Source: a bacterium BMS3Abin02
Lineage (GTDB): Bacteria > Actinomycetota > Acidimicrobiia > Spongiisociales > UBA4744
Assembly (NCBI GenBank): GCA_002897675.1
Contig: BDSU01000024.1
Span: 1-64,000, forward strand
Reading direction: 5' to 3'
Length of the DNA: 64,000 nt
In this document: piece after piece, positions 54,958 to 60,072 of the stretch
How positions within the stretch are numbered: position 1 is the stretch's first letter
Layout: the number at the start of each line of letters is the position of its first letter
Program-made: the position numbers and the translations under genes
Notes under the pieces: generated by a model
What the model saw: only the letters and a program-made list of their open reading frames with translations
Told to the model about the DNA's origin: nothing
The model's database searches: none

Positions 54958-55482
54958 CTAGAGAATGGTCAAGTCGGCCGCGTCGTCTTTGTAGCGTCGC
55001 ACGAGCTCGACGCGAAGAGCATCCACGACCTTCTGGACTGCCTTCCGACTCGACGAGATGTCGATCTCGGCCTCTTTCAGGGATTCGCGAATATCGCCCA
55101 GTTCATCATCGTCGATGACCGGCAACCTCGAAAGGAAGTCGTCGCCGAGCACGTGATCGATGTGCCGCCGGTGGGTGTCTGGAAGGTCCGGCGCGAAGAC
55201 CGTCGGAAACCTGGTGGGACCGCCTTGCGTCGTTTCTCCGGCGCCGAGAACGTCCGGAAGTGCCTCGATCAGAGAGCGCGTCTCTTCCCCCGCGCGGCGG
55301 CGAAGCTCGAATGCGAGGATGTCGAGCCTTCCATGCAGCAACCTGCGGTAGTACGACAGCTCCGTCTCGACTTCGTCTGCGACCTTCTTCCGGGAACGCA
55401 GCTCTGCCAGGTCGATGGACTGCAGGTCCTCCACGTAGGAAGGATGGAGAACGATGTCGATGCGGCGGCGGTATTCGGTCAT
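54958..55482 (-). CDS. rsiG: RsiG/AmfC-family c-di-GMP-binding anti-sigma factor
   Basis: A 174-residue, mostly helical protein. Two copies of the RsiG c-di-GMP motif E(x3)S(x2)R(x3)Q(x3)D are visible: a perfect one at E139-S143-R146-Q150-D154 and one at E39-S43-R46-H50-D54, where His replaces Gln. In Streptomyces, RsiG with c-di-GMP sequesters the sigma factor WhiG; no whiG is in this window. The ATG shares a TGATG junction with the M23 peptidase stop. Confidence 0.85.
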   Translation of the reverse strand: MTEYRRRIDIVLHPSYVEDLQSIDLAELRSRKKVADEVETELSYYRRLLHGRLDILAFELRRRAGEETRSLIEALPDVLGAGETTQGGPTRFPTVFAPDLPDTHRRHIDHVLGDDFLSRLPVIDDDELGDIRESLKEAEIDISSSRKAVQKVVDALRVELVRRYKDDAADLTIL

Positions 55483-56588
55483 CAGCCGCACACTCTCTTC
55501 AAGGTCGGATACGGGTTGACGGGTGAGCCACCCCCCGGATGAAGTTGGAAATGCACGTGTGTTGCTCCTCCATATGCGTTGCCGCTGTTGCCGTTATAGC
55601 CGACTACCTGGCCCTTCGTCACGCGGTCACCGGTCTTGAGGCCCGCTGCCCAGCCGCTGAGATGCGCATAGTAGAAGTCGACCCCGTACGTTGCATAGAC
55701 CCACACGGACTTGCCCCCCAGCCTGTTGTTATAGACGCGCACGGTTCCATCGGCAACGGCGACGACGGGTTGGCCCCTCGGAGCAAAGATATCGGTGCCT
55801 TTGTGGGTCCGGCCTCCCGAACGGGGAGCACCCCATGTGTCGCGAAAATACACCGCCGACGGATCCATCGGGCAGATGAACCCAGGCGTGGCAGAAGCCG
55901 GAACACCACCGGCAGCGCCCTTCCTGCGAGCGGCGGCCAGGGCGGCGGCCCGGGCCTGCTCCTGCCGGTACTTCAAGTCGATCTTGCGGCACTTGGCGCT
56001 CAGTTCTGCGGAAGCCGCGGCCTGGTCCTCCATGATCGAGTTCATCTGCTCAGCCGCCGCGGCCGCCTGCCGGCCGAGGGCGGTGAGTCGCGCTTGCTCT
56101 GCTTGCCAGTCATTTCGGATGCGTTCCAGGTCACGCTTGAGTGCGCCGAGCTGGTCGATCGACGAGATATCTTCTGCGGTCACGACCGAGAGGAACTCCT
56201 GCCCGGTGAGCGCGGCATCGACCGAAGTCGCGAACAGCACGGCCTCGGTTCCTGGCGAACCACCGTTCATGTACATCTCGACGGCTCGGTCCATGACATT
56301 GTCACGGATCTCGGCGATGACGGCGGTCTTGTCGTCGATCCGTTCCCGAAACTGGAATACGCGCAACGCCACTTCCTCCAGCTCCTGGTTGACCGCGTCG
56401 TAGTGGTTCTCGGCATCGTTGGCTCTGACGCGGGCATCGTCCAGACGCTGCTGGGCCGCCCTCGAGTCGGAGCACGCGGCGTCACGCTCCGCTTTGGTCA
56501 CCGACAGCGCCGGAAAAGCCGTCGACAGCAGCCAAACGAAGACGAGAGGAAACACGAGCAGGGTACGTCGAACCCGCAGCCATTGCAT
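55482..56588 (-). CDS. M23-family peptidoglycan peptidase with coiled coil
   Basis: A 368-residue exported protein: signal peptide ending about residue 29, a long coiled coil (about 35-215), then a LytM/M23 domain. Zinc ligands lie in RTHKGTDIFAP and THVHFQLH. The domain order matches EnvC/RipA-like cell-wall hydrolases or their activators. ATG at 56588 gives a clean signal peptide. It is co-transcribed with rsiG, linking envelope remodelling with c-di-GMP control. Confidence 0.92.
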   Translation of the reverse strand: MQWLRVRRTLLVFPLVFVWLLSTAFPALSVTKAERDAACSDSRAAQQRLDDARVRANDAENHYDAVNQELEEVALRVFQFRERIDDKTAVIAEIRDNVMDRAVEMYMNGGSPGTEAVLFATSVDAALTGQEFLSVVTAEDISSIDQLGALKRDLERIRNDWQAEQARLTALGRQAAAAAEQMNSIMEDQAAASAELSAKCRKIDLKYRQEQARAAALAAARRKGAAGGVPASATPGFICPMDPSAVYFRDTWGAPRSGGRTHKGTDIFAPRGQPVVAVADGTVRVYNNRLGGKSVWVYATYGVDFYYAHLSGWAAGLKTGDRVTKGQVVGYNGNSGNAYGGATHVHFQLHPGGGSPVNPYPTLKRVCG

Positions 56589-56707
56589 GACGGCCTGAGC
56601 GTACAGCGGGTTTCGTGTTCCGTGAAGCTCCGTCAGGAGAGCCGATACCCTCCCCGTACTCTCGGATCGCCGTCGATCCCGCGCACCGGATCGTCCCGAG
56701 TCGGCGG

Positions 56708-57046
56708 TTACTCCTCCCTTCCCCGGTAGATTCGCACGTCCGCCTTCTCCACGGTCACGAGGCCTTCGGTCACCATTTCGTCGAGGATCGGCAGGATACG
56801 AGTCATGGCCGTTCGACGATCGACACATTCGATCACGATGGGAAGATCCTCTGAGAGCCGCAGGACCCTGGCGGTGTGGATGGTCGAAGATGCCCCGAAC
56901 CCTTCGATTCCCCGAAATACGGTCGCACCGGCGAGTCCCTCGCGACGGAGCATGAGTACGATCGCCTCGTAGAGCGGTCTCCCCTCGTATTCATCGGATT
57001 CACCGATGAAGATCCTCAGCAAGCTGCCGTCTTCGATGTTCTCCAT
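56708..57046 (-). CDS. DUF190 protein of the fluoride-export operon
   Basis: A 112-residue PII-like ferredoxin-fold protein of the DUF190 family, which is commonly found beside crcB. RIFIGESDEYEGRPLYEAIV and GATVFRGIEGFG are the conserved parts. Probably modulates or accompanies the fluoride channel. It follows the crcB pair by 13 bases. Confidence 0.9.
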   Translation of the reverse strand: MENIEDGSLLRIFIGESDEYEGRPLYEAIVLMLRREGLAGATVFRGIEGFGASSTIHTARVLRLSEDLPIVIECVDRRTAMTRILPILDEMVTEGLVTVEKADVRIYRGREE

Positions 57047-57059
57047 CTGCTCCTCCTTC

Positions 57060-57425
57060 TCATATCATCATCCCCACCAGCAATCCGATGCCGGCCACGC
57101 CGGCTCCGATCACGAGTGTTCCCGCCACATTCCAGATCCCCGAACGGATCCCCGCAGCGCCTCCGCTCTCTGCAAGGTAGATCGTCTCGACCATCCATGT
57201 CGAGAATGTCGTATACCCACCGAGAAAGCCGGCCGTCACCGGCAGCACCCACCAGGCGTCGGGCGCGGATCCAACGACAAAACCGAGCAGTGCTGCACCG
57301 CTCACGTTGACAACGAACGTTCCCCAAGGTCGAGGGTCACGCACGCGTCGCTGGACGAGGCCGATCATCTCGTATCGTGCGAGAGCTCCGAACCCTCCCG
57401 CCAGCACGATCACGATCCAGATCAT
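57060..57425 (-). CDS. crcB: Fluoride channel CrcB/Fluc, second of a pair
   Basis: A 121-residue four-helix membrane protein. GGFGALARYEM, WGTFVVNVSGAALLGF and GFLGGYTTFSTW carry the conserved Asn and Phe of the Fluc pore. The ATG overlaps the stop of the other crcB gene; paired genes like this often encode a heterodimer. Confidence 0.94.
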   Translation of the reverse strand: MIWIVIVLAGGFGALARYEMIGLVQRRVRDPRPWGTFVVNVSGAALLGFVVGSAPDAWWVLPVTAGFLGGYTTFSTWMVETIYLAESGGAAGIRSGIWNVAGTLVIGAGVAGIGLLVGMMI

Positions 57426-57799
57426 CGTCCCCTCCCCTGGCGCAGCCCGACCGCCCCCGCAACCACTCCACACACGACGGTCGCAGCCGCGTAGGCAATC
57501 GACAGGAGGGGCGGCCGGCGCCACAACTCCAGTGCGAACGTCGAGAACGTGGTGAAGGCACCGAGAAAGCCGACGCCGAGAAGCGGCACGCTGATCACCC
57601 TCGAGCGGCCGGCAAGTCGCAGTCTCGGGAGAAGGTATCCCAACGCGTACGCCCCAACGATGTTGACACCGAAAGTCGCCCAGAGCGGACCCGGAACAAG
57701 CGAGGCTATGGCAGCTCTCGCCCCGGCACCGAAACCTCCTCCGATGAAGACGGCCAATTGACGGCGCGTCCGCACCGATCGGCGGTCATGGACGGTCAC
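57422..57799 (-). CDS. crcB: Fluoride channel CrcB/Fluc, first of a pair
   Basis: A 125-residue four-helix membrane protein with the same blocks as its partner: GGGFGAGARAAI, WATFGVNIVGAYALGYL and GFLGAFTTFSTF. It starts three bases after the stop of the MoaD-membrane fusion. I saw no recognisable fluoride riboswitch ahead of the operon. Confidence 0.94.
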   Translation of the reverse strand: MTVHDRRSVRTRRQLAVFIGGGFGAGARAAIASLVPGPLWATFGVNIVGAYALGYLLPRLRLAGRSRVISVPLLGVGFLGAFTTFSTFALELWRRPPLLSIAYAAATVVCGVVAGAVGLRQGRGR

Positions 57800-57802
57800 G
57801 GC

Positions 57803-58807
57803 TCAAACCGGCAGCAGCAGTCGCGCCACAGGGAGGAACACCATCGCGGCCAACAATCCGGCCCCCACGTCGGAAAGCACGCCCGGAACCGCCTGAGTGA
57901 AGTAGACCTCTTTCGTACTCAGCAGCGACGCGAACGCTGCTCCCACAATGAGCACGACGGCGACGAGGATGGCAACGAGGAATGCTGCGAAACCGTTGAG
58001 ATCCCAGATCAAGGCACCGACGACGCCCGTGACAATGGTTGCAACCACGCTCCCGCTCAGAGGATCCAGGACGGAGACAGAAGCTCTGCCGATGAGAAAA
58101 GCAGCCGCTCCTCTCCCCGCGATCACCATCAACAGGAACATCCAGATCCATCTCTGGCCAGATGTCGTCGAGATCCGGGCGATCACGAGCGAGCCCGTTC
58201 CTGCGGCAACAACGACCGCCGCGGTGAGCGCCACGGCGATGGAGGCGAAGTCGCGCGTGGCCGAAACGACGACGCCTTGGATCATGACGGTCAGAATGGC
58301 AATGAGAATGGCGAGTCCGATTCCCGCCGCGCCCCCGCGACCGACATTCCAGGCGTACGGGATGACCGCTCCGGCGAGAGCGGCCACCAGAAGCGGAACC
58401 TGCAGGGCGCTTCCACTCGCCACGCCATTCTCGCTGACATCCCAGGCCCAGGCGGCGGCAACGCCGACGAGAGCCGCAACGAACCAGACGGGATTGTCGA
58501 TGGCGTTGGCGCCGAGCAAGACGATGGCGGCGGCGAACGGCGCGAGGACTCTCACCTCCGGTGCGAGCGTCGCCCCGCCGGAGACCGGAGGGAGCAACGC
58601 CACTTCGTCTTCCGGTCCCACGACGCGATCGGCTTCGGCGGGATCTCCATTCACCCAGATGCGGGCATTCGCGAGACCTCTCCGAAAGTCACTCCCGTAA
58701 CGGTCGGTCGCCAGAACGAGGATCTCCTCGACGGTCGACCCGGGAATGTCCACGACCGGAGTTCCCGCGAGCTCCCGAAGGCCGGCGAACAGACGAACGT
58801 GTGCCAT
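57803..58807 (-). CDS. MoaD/ThiS-like domain fused to a multi-helix membrane protein
   Basis: A 334-residue fusion. Residues 1-78 have the beta-grasp fold of MoaD (VRLFAGLRELAG, VEDEVALLPPVSGG-like ending) and stop exactly at a diglycine (G77-G78). Instead of ending there the chain continues into about eight or nine membrane helices that faintly recall CdsA cytidylyltransferases but lack their signature. An internal diglycine cannot be adenylated unless cleaved. First gene of the operon with the crcB pair; TAGCCT lies seven bases before the ATG. Confidence 0.8.
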   Translation of the reverse strand: MAHVRLFAGLRELAGTPVVDIPGSTVEEILVLATDRYGSDFRRGLANARIWVNGDPAEADRVVGPEDEVALLPPVSGGATLAPEVRVLAPFAAAIVLLGANAIDNPVWFVAALVGVAAAWAWDVSENGVASGSALQVPLLVAALAGAVIPYAWNVGRGGAAGIGLAILIAILTVMIQGVVVSATRDFASIAVALTAAVVVAAGTGSLVIARISTTSGQRWIWMFLLMVIAGRGAAAFLIGRASVSVLDPLSGSVVATIVTGVVGALIWDLNGFAAFLVAILVAVVLIVGAAFASLLSTKEVYFTQAVPGVLSDVGAGLLAAMVFLPVARLLLPV

Positions 58808-58820: not shown

Positions 58821-58947
58821 GCGTCGCACCGGAGAACCTCCGCCCTTCTGCCGCCTCATCGTTCGCCTTGCTGGAGCAAAACACGCGTCTCGTCAATGCT
58901 GGCCGCACATAGTCCTGTCGGCATTGATGAGATTGGGCCGCCTCTGG

Positions 58948-59963: not shown

Positions 59964-60015
59964 TGGCGAACGGCGCGAGGACTCTCACCTCCGCCCTTCT
60001 GACGCCTCATCGTTC
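59964..60015. repeat. Mosaic copy of two segments from 58533-58865
   Basis: The first 30 bases match 58533-58560 closely, and the remainder matches 58837-58865 with one mismatch, as if a copied segment had lost the 276 bases between. The sources are the start region of the MoaD-fusion gene and its upstream flank. Confidence 0.65.
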
Positions 60016-60072
60016 GACGATCGCGATCTGCATACCATCAGGCGTAGCTTGAGACATGACGCAGGAGGTGTC

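What the first reader, a model, noticed from the sequence alone, without database searches (positions are those of the whole stretch)
57803..58807. MoaD-like domain with an internal diglycine fused to a membrane protein heading a fluoride operon
The beta-grasp domain ends exactly at Gly77-Gly78, where a free MoaD/ThiS would be activated, but the chain then enters eight or nine membrane helices. That arrangement would work only if the chain is cleaved, or if the domain has been recruited as a sensor or conjugation-like module. It leads an operon with two crcB genes and DUF190.
Basis: partly seen in the sequence, partly recalled or inferred. Interest (0 to 1): 0.62.

Follow-up and report, generated by a model that had tools for sequence, protein, structure and literature searches.

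The report
Sulfur carrier fused to membrane pseudo-enzyme
In an entire order of actinobacteria the small sulfur-carrier protein MoaD, needed to build the molybdenum cofactor, is made as the front end of a nine-helix membrane protein descended from a lipid-synthesis enzyme (CdsA), so it probably has to be cut loose, much as ubiquitin is cut from its precursors, before it can work.

Summary
The ORF at 58807-57803(-) is one open chain: a MoaD domain (residues 1-78, ending PPVSGG) followed by nine predicted membrane helices.

It is not a local oddity. An orthologue is in 59/59 relatives searched, and the membrane domain in 91/95 genomes of the order (class Acidimicrobiia). PPVSGG is identical in 74/74 full-length homologues, and conservation drops at the next residue. 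The membrane domain is a CdsA homologue (structure Z 18.2; profile comparison about 98%, E 7.6e-13) that has lost the CdsA catalytic signature.

In other families of the class the same pair is usually two abutting genes, MoaD ending in GG. At least two further fusions there are probably independent.

In 16 near-complete genomes the fusion is the only MoaD/ThiS-fold gene found. All 16 keep a MoeB-type E1 and a JAMM protease; 14 keep MoaE. So the fusion is most likely the working MoaD, made as a membrane-tethered precursor and released by cleavage after Gly78, probably by JAMM, as for MoaD-MoaE fusions. Cleavage itself is inferred.

The fluoride-operon reading is not supported as general: crcB follows co-directionally in only 4 of 60 loci. 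The function of the CdsA-like part is unknown.

The parts
58574..58807 (-). MoaD/ThiS beta-grasp domain, residues 1-78
   Evidence: PF02597 res 4-78; best structural match mycobacterial MoaD 6jbz_B, Z 13.2, rmsd 1.6 over 76 residues
58574..58591 (-). PPVSGG (residues 73-78), the conserved end of the carrier domain with the diglycine G77-G78
   Evidence: identical in 74/74 full-length homologues; conservation falls at residue 79; AF2 pLDDT <50 only at 76-79
57806..58573 (-). Nine-helix membrane domain (residues 79-334), degenerate CdsA homologue; stop codon 57803-57805
   Evidence: 4q2g_B (T. maritima CdsA) Z 18.2, 233 aligned, next match Z 7.7; Foldseek prob 1.00, TM 0.65; HHalign vs canonical CdsA 97.8%, E 7.6e-13; positive-inside loops put the N-terminus in the cytosol
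57422..57799 (-). crcB-like gene 1 (neighbour of the window's lineage; not part of the conserved unit)
   Evidence: PF02537 E 2e-18; co-directional crcB next to the fusion in only 4 of 60 loci
57060..57425 (-). crcB-like gene 2 (likely start ATG at 57425)
   Evidence: PF02537 E 3e-22; start inferred from the N-terminal MIWIVIV of the ORF
56708..57046 (-). DUF190 gene (neighbour)
   Evidence: PF02641 E 1e-40
55482..56828 (-). M23 peptidase ORF, the most conserved downstream neighbour of the fusion (true start probably internal)
   Evidence: PF01551; co-directional neighbour in 56 of 60 fusion loci
54958..55491 (-). RsiG-like gene, conserved neighbour, also near the split moaD/CdsA-like pairs L108 and L109
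   Evidence: PF22802 E 1e-22; 39 of 60 loci; L105, L108, L109
53921..54862 (-). L-asparaginase II gene, conserved neighbour
   Evidence: PF06089 E 1e-86; 44 of 60 loci

Best explanation
The gene encodes a precursor of the molybdopterin-synthase sulfur carrier MoaD, fused through its C-terminal Gly-Gly to a nine-helix CdsA-fold pseudoenzyme. The MoaD domain sits on the cytosolic side of the membrane. A peptidase cuts after Gly78, most likely the JAMM (Prok-JAB, desampylase/Mec-like) metalloprotease kept across the order. Free MoaD with a C-terminal Gly-Gly is then adenylated and thiocarboxylated by the rhodanese-MoeB E1 and gives sulfur to cPMP bound in MoaE. Shown here: architecture, invariance of PPVSGG, CdsA homology, loss of the CdsA signature, split homologues with the same break point, absence of any other detected ThiS-fold gene in 16 genomes that keep E1 and JAMM (14 with MoaE). 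Inferred: cleavage after G78, JAMM as the protease, activity as MoaD, topology. Unknown: what the CdsA-like domain does; at present it is best seen as a membrane anchor or conserved co-produced partner.
For: (1) PPVSGG 74/74; top-residue frequency 1.00 at 73-78 against 0.27 over 79-88, 0.64 in the rest of MoaD and 0.44 in the membrane domain. (2) Split homologues: in L108, L109, L115, L116, L118, L119, L122 and L123 the MoaD ORF stops directly after PPVSGG, and a separate CdsA-like gene starts at, overlapping or within a few bases of that stop. L110 has a free 78-aa MoaD between moaA and moaC with moaE and moeA upstream. (3) In 16 genomes at least 90% complete the fusion is the only PF02597 gene; 16/16 have E1, 16/16 JAMM, 14/16 MoaE. 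(4) The JAMM proteins inspected keep the H-x-H...S-x-x-D motif, and JAMM directly follows the E1 gene in L153-L156; the E1 of L153 is a rhodanese-MoeB equivalog. (5) Precedents for C-terminal MoaD fusions: MoaX cut between Gly82 and Ser83 (PMC4326299); HvJAMM1 cuts SAMP1-MoaE after the last Gly and makes it active (PMC4443979); DRJAMM cuts and activates MoaD-MoaE (PMC8832034). (6) Some free MoaDs carry short tails past GG (GGCT, GGN, GGFR, GGAVGVR), which also imply trimming if they work. (7) Positive-inside loops place the MoaD side in the cytosol; the junction is the least ordered part of the model.
Against: No experiment shows cleavage. JAMM is also present in 13 of 14 genomes of the class outside the order, most with free MoaD, so it is not specific to the fusion and may serve other carriers such as CysO. 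In the window's own 95%-complete genome neither E1 nor JAMM was found, although the same-genus genome G001 has both; a gap is likely but unproven. The JAMM gene is not next to the fusion gene. 2 of the 16 genomes lack MoaE. MoaA and MoaC were not tallied. A very divergent free MoaD could be missed by the PF02597 search.
Confidence: 0.66

Rival explanations
1. MoaD precursor cleaved after G78, but by a protease other than JAMM (a membrane protease such as a rhomboid or FtsH-type enzyme, or an unknown cytosolic one).
For: The MoaX protease was reported as unidentified in mycobacteria. JAMM also occurs where MoaD is free and was not found in the window's own assembly. The substrate is membrane-bound, unlike the known JAMM-cleaved MoaD fusions.
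Against: Known enzymes that cut linear MoaD/SAMP1 fusions after GG are JAMM proteins. JAMM is in 44 of 45 near-complete genomes of the order, adjacent to the E1 gene in at least 12.
Confidence: 0.15
2. The chain is never cut: the MoaD-like domain is a scaffold or sensor module of a membrane protein, as the ubiquitin-like domain of EccD in type VII secretion, and the GG is a structural relic.
For: YukD-like domains fused to multi-helix membrane domains exist in actinobacteria (PMC1779556); Foldseek lists ESX core chains weakly.
Against: A relic would not keep PPVSGG in 74/74; the fusion is the only candidate MoaD where E1, JAMM and mostly MoaE are kept; split homologues are plain 78-aa MoaDs, one in a moa cluster.
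Confidence: 0.09
3. Two separate products arise without proteolysis, by ribosomal frameshifting or termination after GG plus re-initiation, so that free MoaD is made directly.
For: The split relatives have an overlapping stop/start at exactly this point; 67 of 74 fusions have an in-frame ATG/GTG within 25 codons after GG.
Against: No conserved slippery site was seen in the junctions printed; first stops in the other frames are not at a fixed place (+1 frame median 15 codons, none in 21 of 74; -1 frame none in 62 of 74). Internal initiation gives a free membrane part but never a free MoaD.
Confidence: 0.06
4. The fusion is part of a fluoride resistance operon, the MoaD domain having been recruited for fluoride sensing or CrcB assembly.
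For: Two crcB genes and DUF190 follow directly in the window and in G001; crcB lies next to the fusion in 18 of 60 loci.
Against: 14 of those 18 crcB genes are convergent, only 4 co-directional, and 42 loci have none; no fluoride riboswitch; the order-wide neighbours are M23, asparaginase II and RsiG genes.
Confidence: 0.03

Closest known systems
MoaX of Mycobacterium tuberculosis and other MoaD-MoaE linear fusions (e.g. Deinococcus DR2607), cut after Gly-Gly
   Same: A MoaD domain with an internal Gly-Gly at the N-terminus of a longer chain; for a sulfur carrier it must be cleaved; a JAMM enzyme does this in Deinococcus and, for SAMP1-MoaE, in Haloferax
   Different: The partner is not MoaE but a nine-helix CdsA-fold membrane protein; MoaE is a separate gene; the fusion is near-universal in an order and often the only MoaD
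CdsA, phosphatidate cytidylyltransferase (PF01148; T. maritima 4Q2E/4Q2G)
   Same: Same fold (Z 18.2; HHalign 97.8%)
   Different: The signature GDL..S..KR...KD...GHGG..DR.D is gone; not recognised by Pfam; the same genome has a canonical CdsA
EccD / YukD-like ubiquitin fold plus membrane domain (type VII secretion)
   Same: Beta-grasp domain fused to a multi-pass membrane domain in actinobacteria
   Different: Different membrane fold (12 helices per PMC1779556, here nine of CdsA type); different beta-grasp family; the GG is kept here
Ubiquitin and Fubi precursors fused to ribosomal proteins
   Same: A ubiquitin-fold carrier made as an N-terminal fusion and freed by a protease (works like; Fubi-S30/USP36, abstract of PMC10611586 as listed)
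   Different: Bacterial sulfur carrier, membrane partner; cleavage here is inferred
CysO-Mec (JAMM)-CysM cysteine pathway of actinobacteria
   Same: CysO with JAMM and E1 genes is present in some relatives (L128, L129, L131)
   Different: CysO is a separate free protein, distant from the fusion's MoaD domain in the tree; no CysO was found in the 16 fusion-only genomes, which keep JAMM

Membership tests
MoaD (molybdopterin synthase small subunit) | Beta-grasp fold matching ThiS/MoaD models | tested here: met
   PF02597 E 6e-09 over cut-off; 6jbz_B MoaD Z 13.2. NCBIfam moaD matched at 41.5 bits, below its equivalog cut-off of 66
MoaD (molybdopterin synthase small subunit) | Conserved Gly-Gly end (PPVSGG type) | tested here: met
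   74/74
MoaD (molybdopterin synthase small subunit) | Gly-Gly is the C-terminus of the mature protein | not testable with these tools
   Internal in the gene product; mature form needs proteomics
MoaD (molybdopterin synthase small subunit) | Genome has MoaE and a MoeB-type E1 | tested here: met
   Relatives: MoaE 54/59, E1 over cut-off 53/59. Own genome: MoaE yes, E1 not found in the 95%-complete assembly
MoaD (molybdopterin synthase small subunit) | Thiocarboxylation and sulfur transfer in MPT synthase | not testable with these tools
   Biochemistry needed
CdsA / CTP transferase family (PF01148) | CdsA fold | tested here: met
   4q2g_B Z 18.2, 233 residues, rmsd 4.1, next row Z 7.7; HHalign E 7.6e-13
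CdsA / CTP transferase family (PF01148) | Catalytic signature GDL-x2-S-x2-KR...KD...GHGG-x2-DR-x-D | tested here: not met
   Replaced by AGR..GS..R.G...PG.L..LDG in the fusions and by GQ..AS..LPR...RRLDS in the split proteins; intact in the canonical CdsAs fetched for comparison and in the own-genome CdsA. So not filed as a CDP-DAG synthase
MoaD-MoaE (MoaX-type) fusion | C-terminal MoaE domain | tested here: not met
   C-terminal part is membrane, CdsA fold; MoaE is a separate gene
EccD / type VII secretion | EccD membrane domain or ESX gene context | tested here: inconclusive
   No credible Pfam match to the membrane part; CdsA is the only strong structural match; no ESX gene noticed among the neighbours inspected
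Fluoride operon module | Conserved co-directional linkage with crcB | tested here: not met
   4 of 60 loci

The most novel reading that the evidence does not exclude
The CdsA-fold pseudoenzyme is an active part of the system: it holds MoaD as an inactive membrane-bound precursor and controls, through a ligand or membrane state, when the protease releases it, or it has been repurposed to handle a pterin or cytidylyl intermediate next to molybdopterin synthase. This would be a class-wide, membrane-gated step in molybdenum cofactor synthesis.
Probability: 0.2. Interest if true: 0.78.

Novelty: new variant of a known kind. Interest (0 to 1): 0.57.

Why it matters
The characterised MoaD fusions of this kind are to MoaE. 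Here a whole bacterial order appears to make its MoaD, often its only one, as the head of an integral membrane protein, so cofactor synthesis would depend on a ubiquitin-precursor-like cut. It gives a clear test of the 2006 prediction that JAB/JAMM peptidases free fused ThiS/MoaD domains (PMC1779556). It also exposes a CdsA-derived pseudoenzyme of unknown function, tied to moaD through operon or fusion across a class.

Tried and rejected
A single-sequence search of genome contigs found nothing; the alignment query found 229 relatives. Pfam, NCBIfam and PDB sequence searches give no name to the membrane part; only profile comparison and structure showed CdsA. My first alignment read minus-strand loci on the wrong strand, redone. 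Foldseek on the full model ranked only MoaD-like chains with confidence; its weak ESX hits were set aside after the membrane domain alone gave CdsA. The idea of a retained CDP-DAG synthase was rejected on the lost signature. The idea that L117 and L178 share the order's fusion event was set aside: their MoaD domains fall in the free-MoaD clade (99/98), although only 78 columns were available. Literature searches for MoaD with CdsA or Acidimicrobiia found no description.

Full report
WHAT IS THERE. The ORF at window 58807-57803(-) is a single 334-aa frame. Residues 4-78 match the ThiS/MoaD family over its cut-off; NCBIfam's moaD, moaD_arch and SAMP1 models all end at residue 78. AlphaFold2 on an alignment of 64 homologues gives pLDDT 93.0 and pTM 0.83: a beta-grasp domain, then nine helices. 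The only stretch with pLDDT under 50 is 76-79, the Ser-Gly-Gly-Ala junction. The MoaD part matches mycobacterial MoaD (6jbz_B, Z 13.2, rmsd 1.6 over 76 residues).

HOW WIDESPREAD. All 59 relatives searched have the gene, nearly all over the full length and with no stop inside the main match. The membrane-domain profile finds it in 91 of 95 genomes of the order among 296 of the class. The named records are mostly Acidimicrobiia MAGs. In 74 full-length homologues, down to about 29% identity, PPVSGG is identical in all. The next residue is mostly small (A 35, S 20, T 9, E 4, D 3, N 2, G 1). Mean top-residue frequency is 1.00 at 73-78, 0.27 over 79-88, 0.64 over 2-72 and 0.44 over 89-334. The stretch from GG to the residue equivalent to 92, inside the first helix, varies from 12 to 29 residues. 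This is what a carrier whose tail is still used, followed by a free linker, should look like.

THE MEMBRANE DOMAIN. No Pfam model gives a credible match to it in any of 64 members. Predicted alone (pLDDT 93.4, pTM 0.90), it matches T. maritima CdsA 4q2g_B with Z 18.2 over 233 residues; the next row is Z 7.7; Foldseek probability 1.00, TM 0.65. Profile comparison with canonical CdsAs gives 97.8% and E 7.6e-13 over 258 columns for the fusions, and 98.1% and E 1.4e-13 for the split proteins. Searches with these profiles pick up canonical CdsAs as the next family. The catalytic signature GDL..S..KR...KD...GHGG..DR.D is lost in both forms, while the own genome has a canonical CdsA elsewhere. So it is a CdsA-fold pseudoenzyme by sequence; activity was not tested. 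Loops 2-3, 4-5, 6-7 and 8-9 carry the positive charges (1.2-1.9 K/R each, against 0-0.3 in the others), which puts the N-terminal MoaD domain in the cytosol.

SPLIT RELATIVES. Outside the order, MoaD is usually a separate gene. In L108, L109, L115, L116, L118, L119, L122 and L123 it stops directly after PPVSGG, and a separate CdsA-like gene starts at, overlapping (ATGA or TGATG) or within a few bases of that stop. In L105, L120, L121 and L124 the free MoaD runs one to five residues beyond GG. In L110 a free 78-aa MoaD lies between moaA and moaC, with moaE and moeA upstream (MoaE by Pfam, the others named by eye). L117 (family f31) and L178 (f28) are in-frame fusions with their own linkers. Their MoaD domains fall inside the free-MoaD clade (99/98), so these fusions are probably independent of the order's, although only 78 columns were available. 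The pair is thus a moaD / CdsA-like operon found across the class that became one gene more than once. Within the phylum sample, matches beyond the class are weak; the five fetched are canonical CdsAs.

IS IT THE WORKING MoaD? Among the 59 relatives, 16 genomes at least 90% complete have the fusion as their only detected ThiS-fold gene: G005, G008, G013, G015, G019, G020, G022, G025 (one contig), G026, G029, G032, G033, G045, G046, G052, G057. All 16 have an E1 over cut-off and a Prok-JAB/JAMM gene; 14 have MoaE (G015's is in two pieces). Where a second ThiS-fold gene exists, those inspected are ThiS next to thiO, CysO-like proteins (some next to JAMM, E1 or cysteine synthase), oxidoreductase-linked MoaD-like proteins, or TtuB next to TtuA (most named by eye). 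One, next to a CoxL-like gene in G009, could itself be a MoaD. An E1 and MoaE without any other carrier make little sense unless the fusion serves them.

WHICH PROTEASE? Thiocarboxylation needs a free C-terminal glycine (established MoaD biochemistry; discussed in PMC4326299), so a MoaD with an internal GG must be cut. Precedents: MoaX of M. tuberculosis is cut between Gly82 and Ser83, and this is needed for activity. [quoted passage not shown] Deinococcus JAMM cuts and activates MoaD-MoaE (PMC8832034). Iyer et al. [quoted passage not shown] JAMM is in 44 of 45 near-complete genomes of the order. The sequences inspected keep H-x-H...S-x-x-D, and in L153-L156 the JAMM gene directly follows the E1 gene. 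The L153 E1 is a rhodanese-MoeB equivalog, and its JAMM is nearest to the desampylase model, below that model's cut-off. In several fusion-only genomes (e.g. L161, L164, L165, L167-L171) the JAMM gene precedes genes that read like a metallo-beta-lactamase-fold protein and, where enough DNA was held, RNase PH and an XTP pyrophosphatase (named by eye). From memory this resembles the M. tuberculosis mec locus with cysO and cysM missing, which would leave the fusion as an obvious substrate; this is a lead, not a test.

AGAINST. JAMM is not specific to the fusion: 13 of 14 class genomes outside the order also have it. The JAMM gene is not linked to the fusion gene. The window's own assembly (95% complete) shows neither E1 nor JAMM, although G001 of the same genus has both. 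MoaA and MoaC were not tallied. Cleavage, activity and topology are predictions.

FLUORIDE CONTEXT. The two crcB genes and DUF190 are real and co-directional in the window and in G001. Across 60 loci with at least 3.5 kb downstream, crcB is absent next to the fusion in 42, convergent in 14 and co-directional in 4. The recurrent co-directional neighbours are M23 peptidase (56), asparaginase II (44), an MshA-like glycosyltransferase (43) and RsiG (39). No fluoride riboswitch was found. The fluoride link is local.

VERDICT. New variant of a known kind: a MoaD fusion that must be cut, with a partner for which no report was found and near-universal spread in an order. The strange part is the CdsA-derived membrane pseudoenzyme tied to moaD across a class; its role is open.

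Noticed in passing
window 58532-58560 / 59965-59993 and 58836-58865 / 59987-60016: A 52-bp piece upstream (59965-60016) joins two stretches that flank most of the MoaD coding part (29/29 and 29/30 identical), overlapping by the 7 bases ACCTCCG. It looks like a copy of the gene's 5' region with most of the MoaD part deleted, or an assembly scar.
   Followed up: partly
window 54958-55491 (-); L105, L108, L109: An RsiG-like anti-sigma-type gene is a recurrent neighbour of both fused and split moaD/CdsA-like loci, followed in L105, L108 and L109 by an XRE-type HTH gene.
   Followed up: partly
L112 (G000:C3, 1492-2576): The own genome carries a 64-aa TtuB-like carrier directly upstream of a TtuA-like tRNA thiolase gene, yet no E1 was found to activate it.
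   Followed up: partly
L105, L120, L121, L124: Free MoaD genes whose reading frame runs 1-5 residues past Gly-Gly (GGCT, GGN, GGFR, GGAVGVR) before the next gene: possible intermediates on the way to fusion.
   Followed up: partly
L161, L164, L165, L167-L171: JAMM gene kept next to MBL-fold, RNase PH and XTP-pyrophosphatase-like genes in genomes with no CysO detected.
   Followed up: no
L139 (G066:C9): A CdsA-profile match with an apparently degenerate C-terminal signature and no MoaD in the same frame; possibly another CdsA-like pseudoenzyme.
   Followed up: no
crcB next to 14 fusion loci on the opposite strand (e.g. L041, L043, L058, L073): crcB recurs at the same site but mostly convergent with the fusion, so its position, not its orientation, is conserved.
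   Followed up: partly
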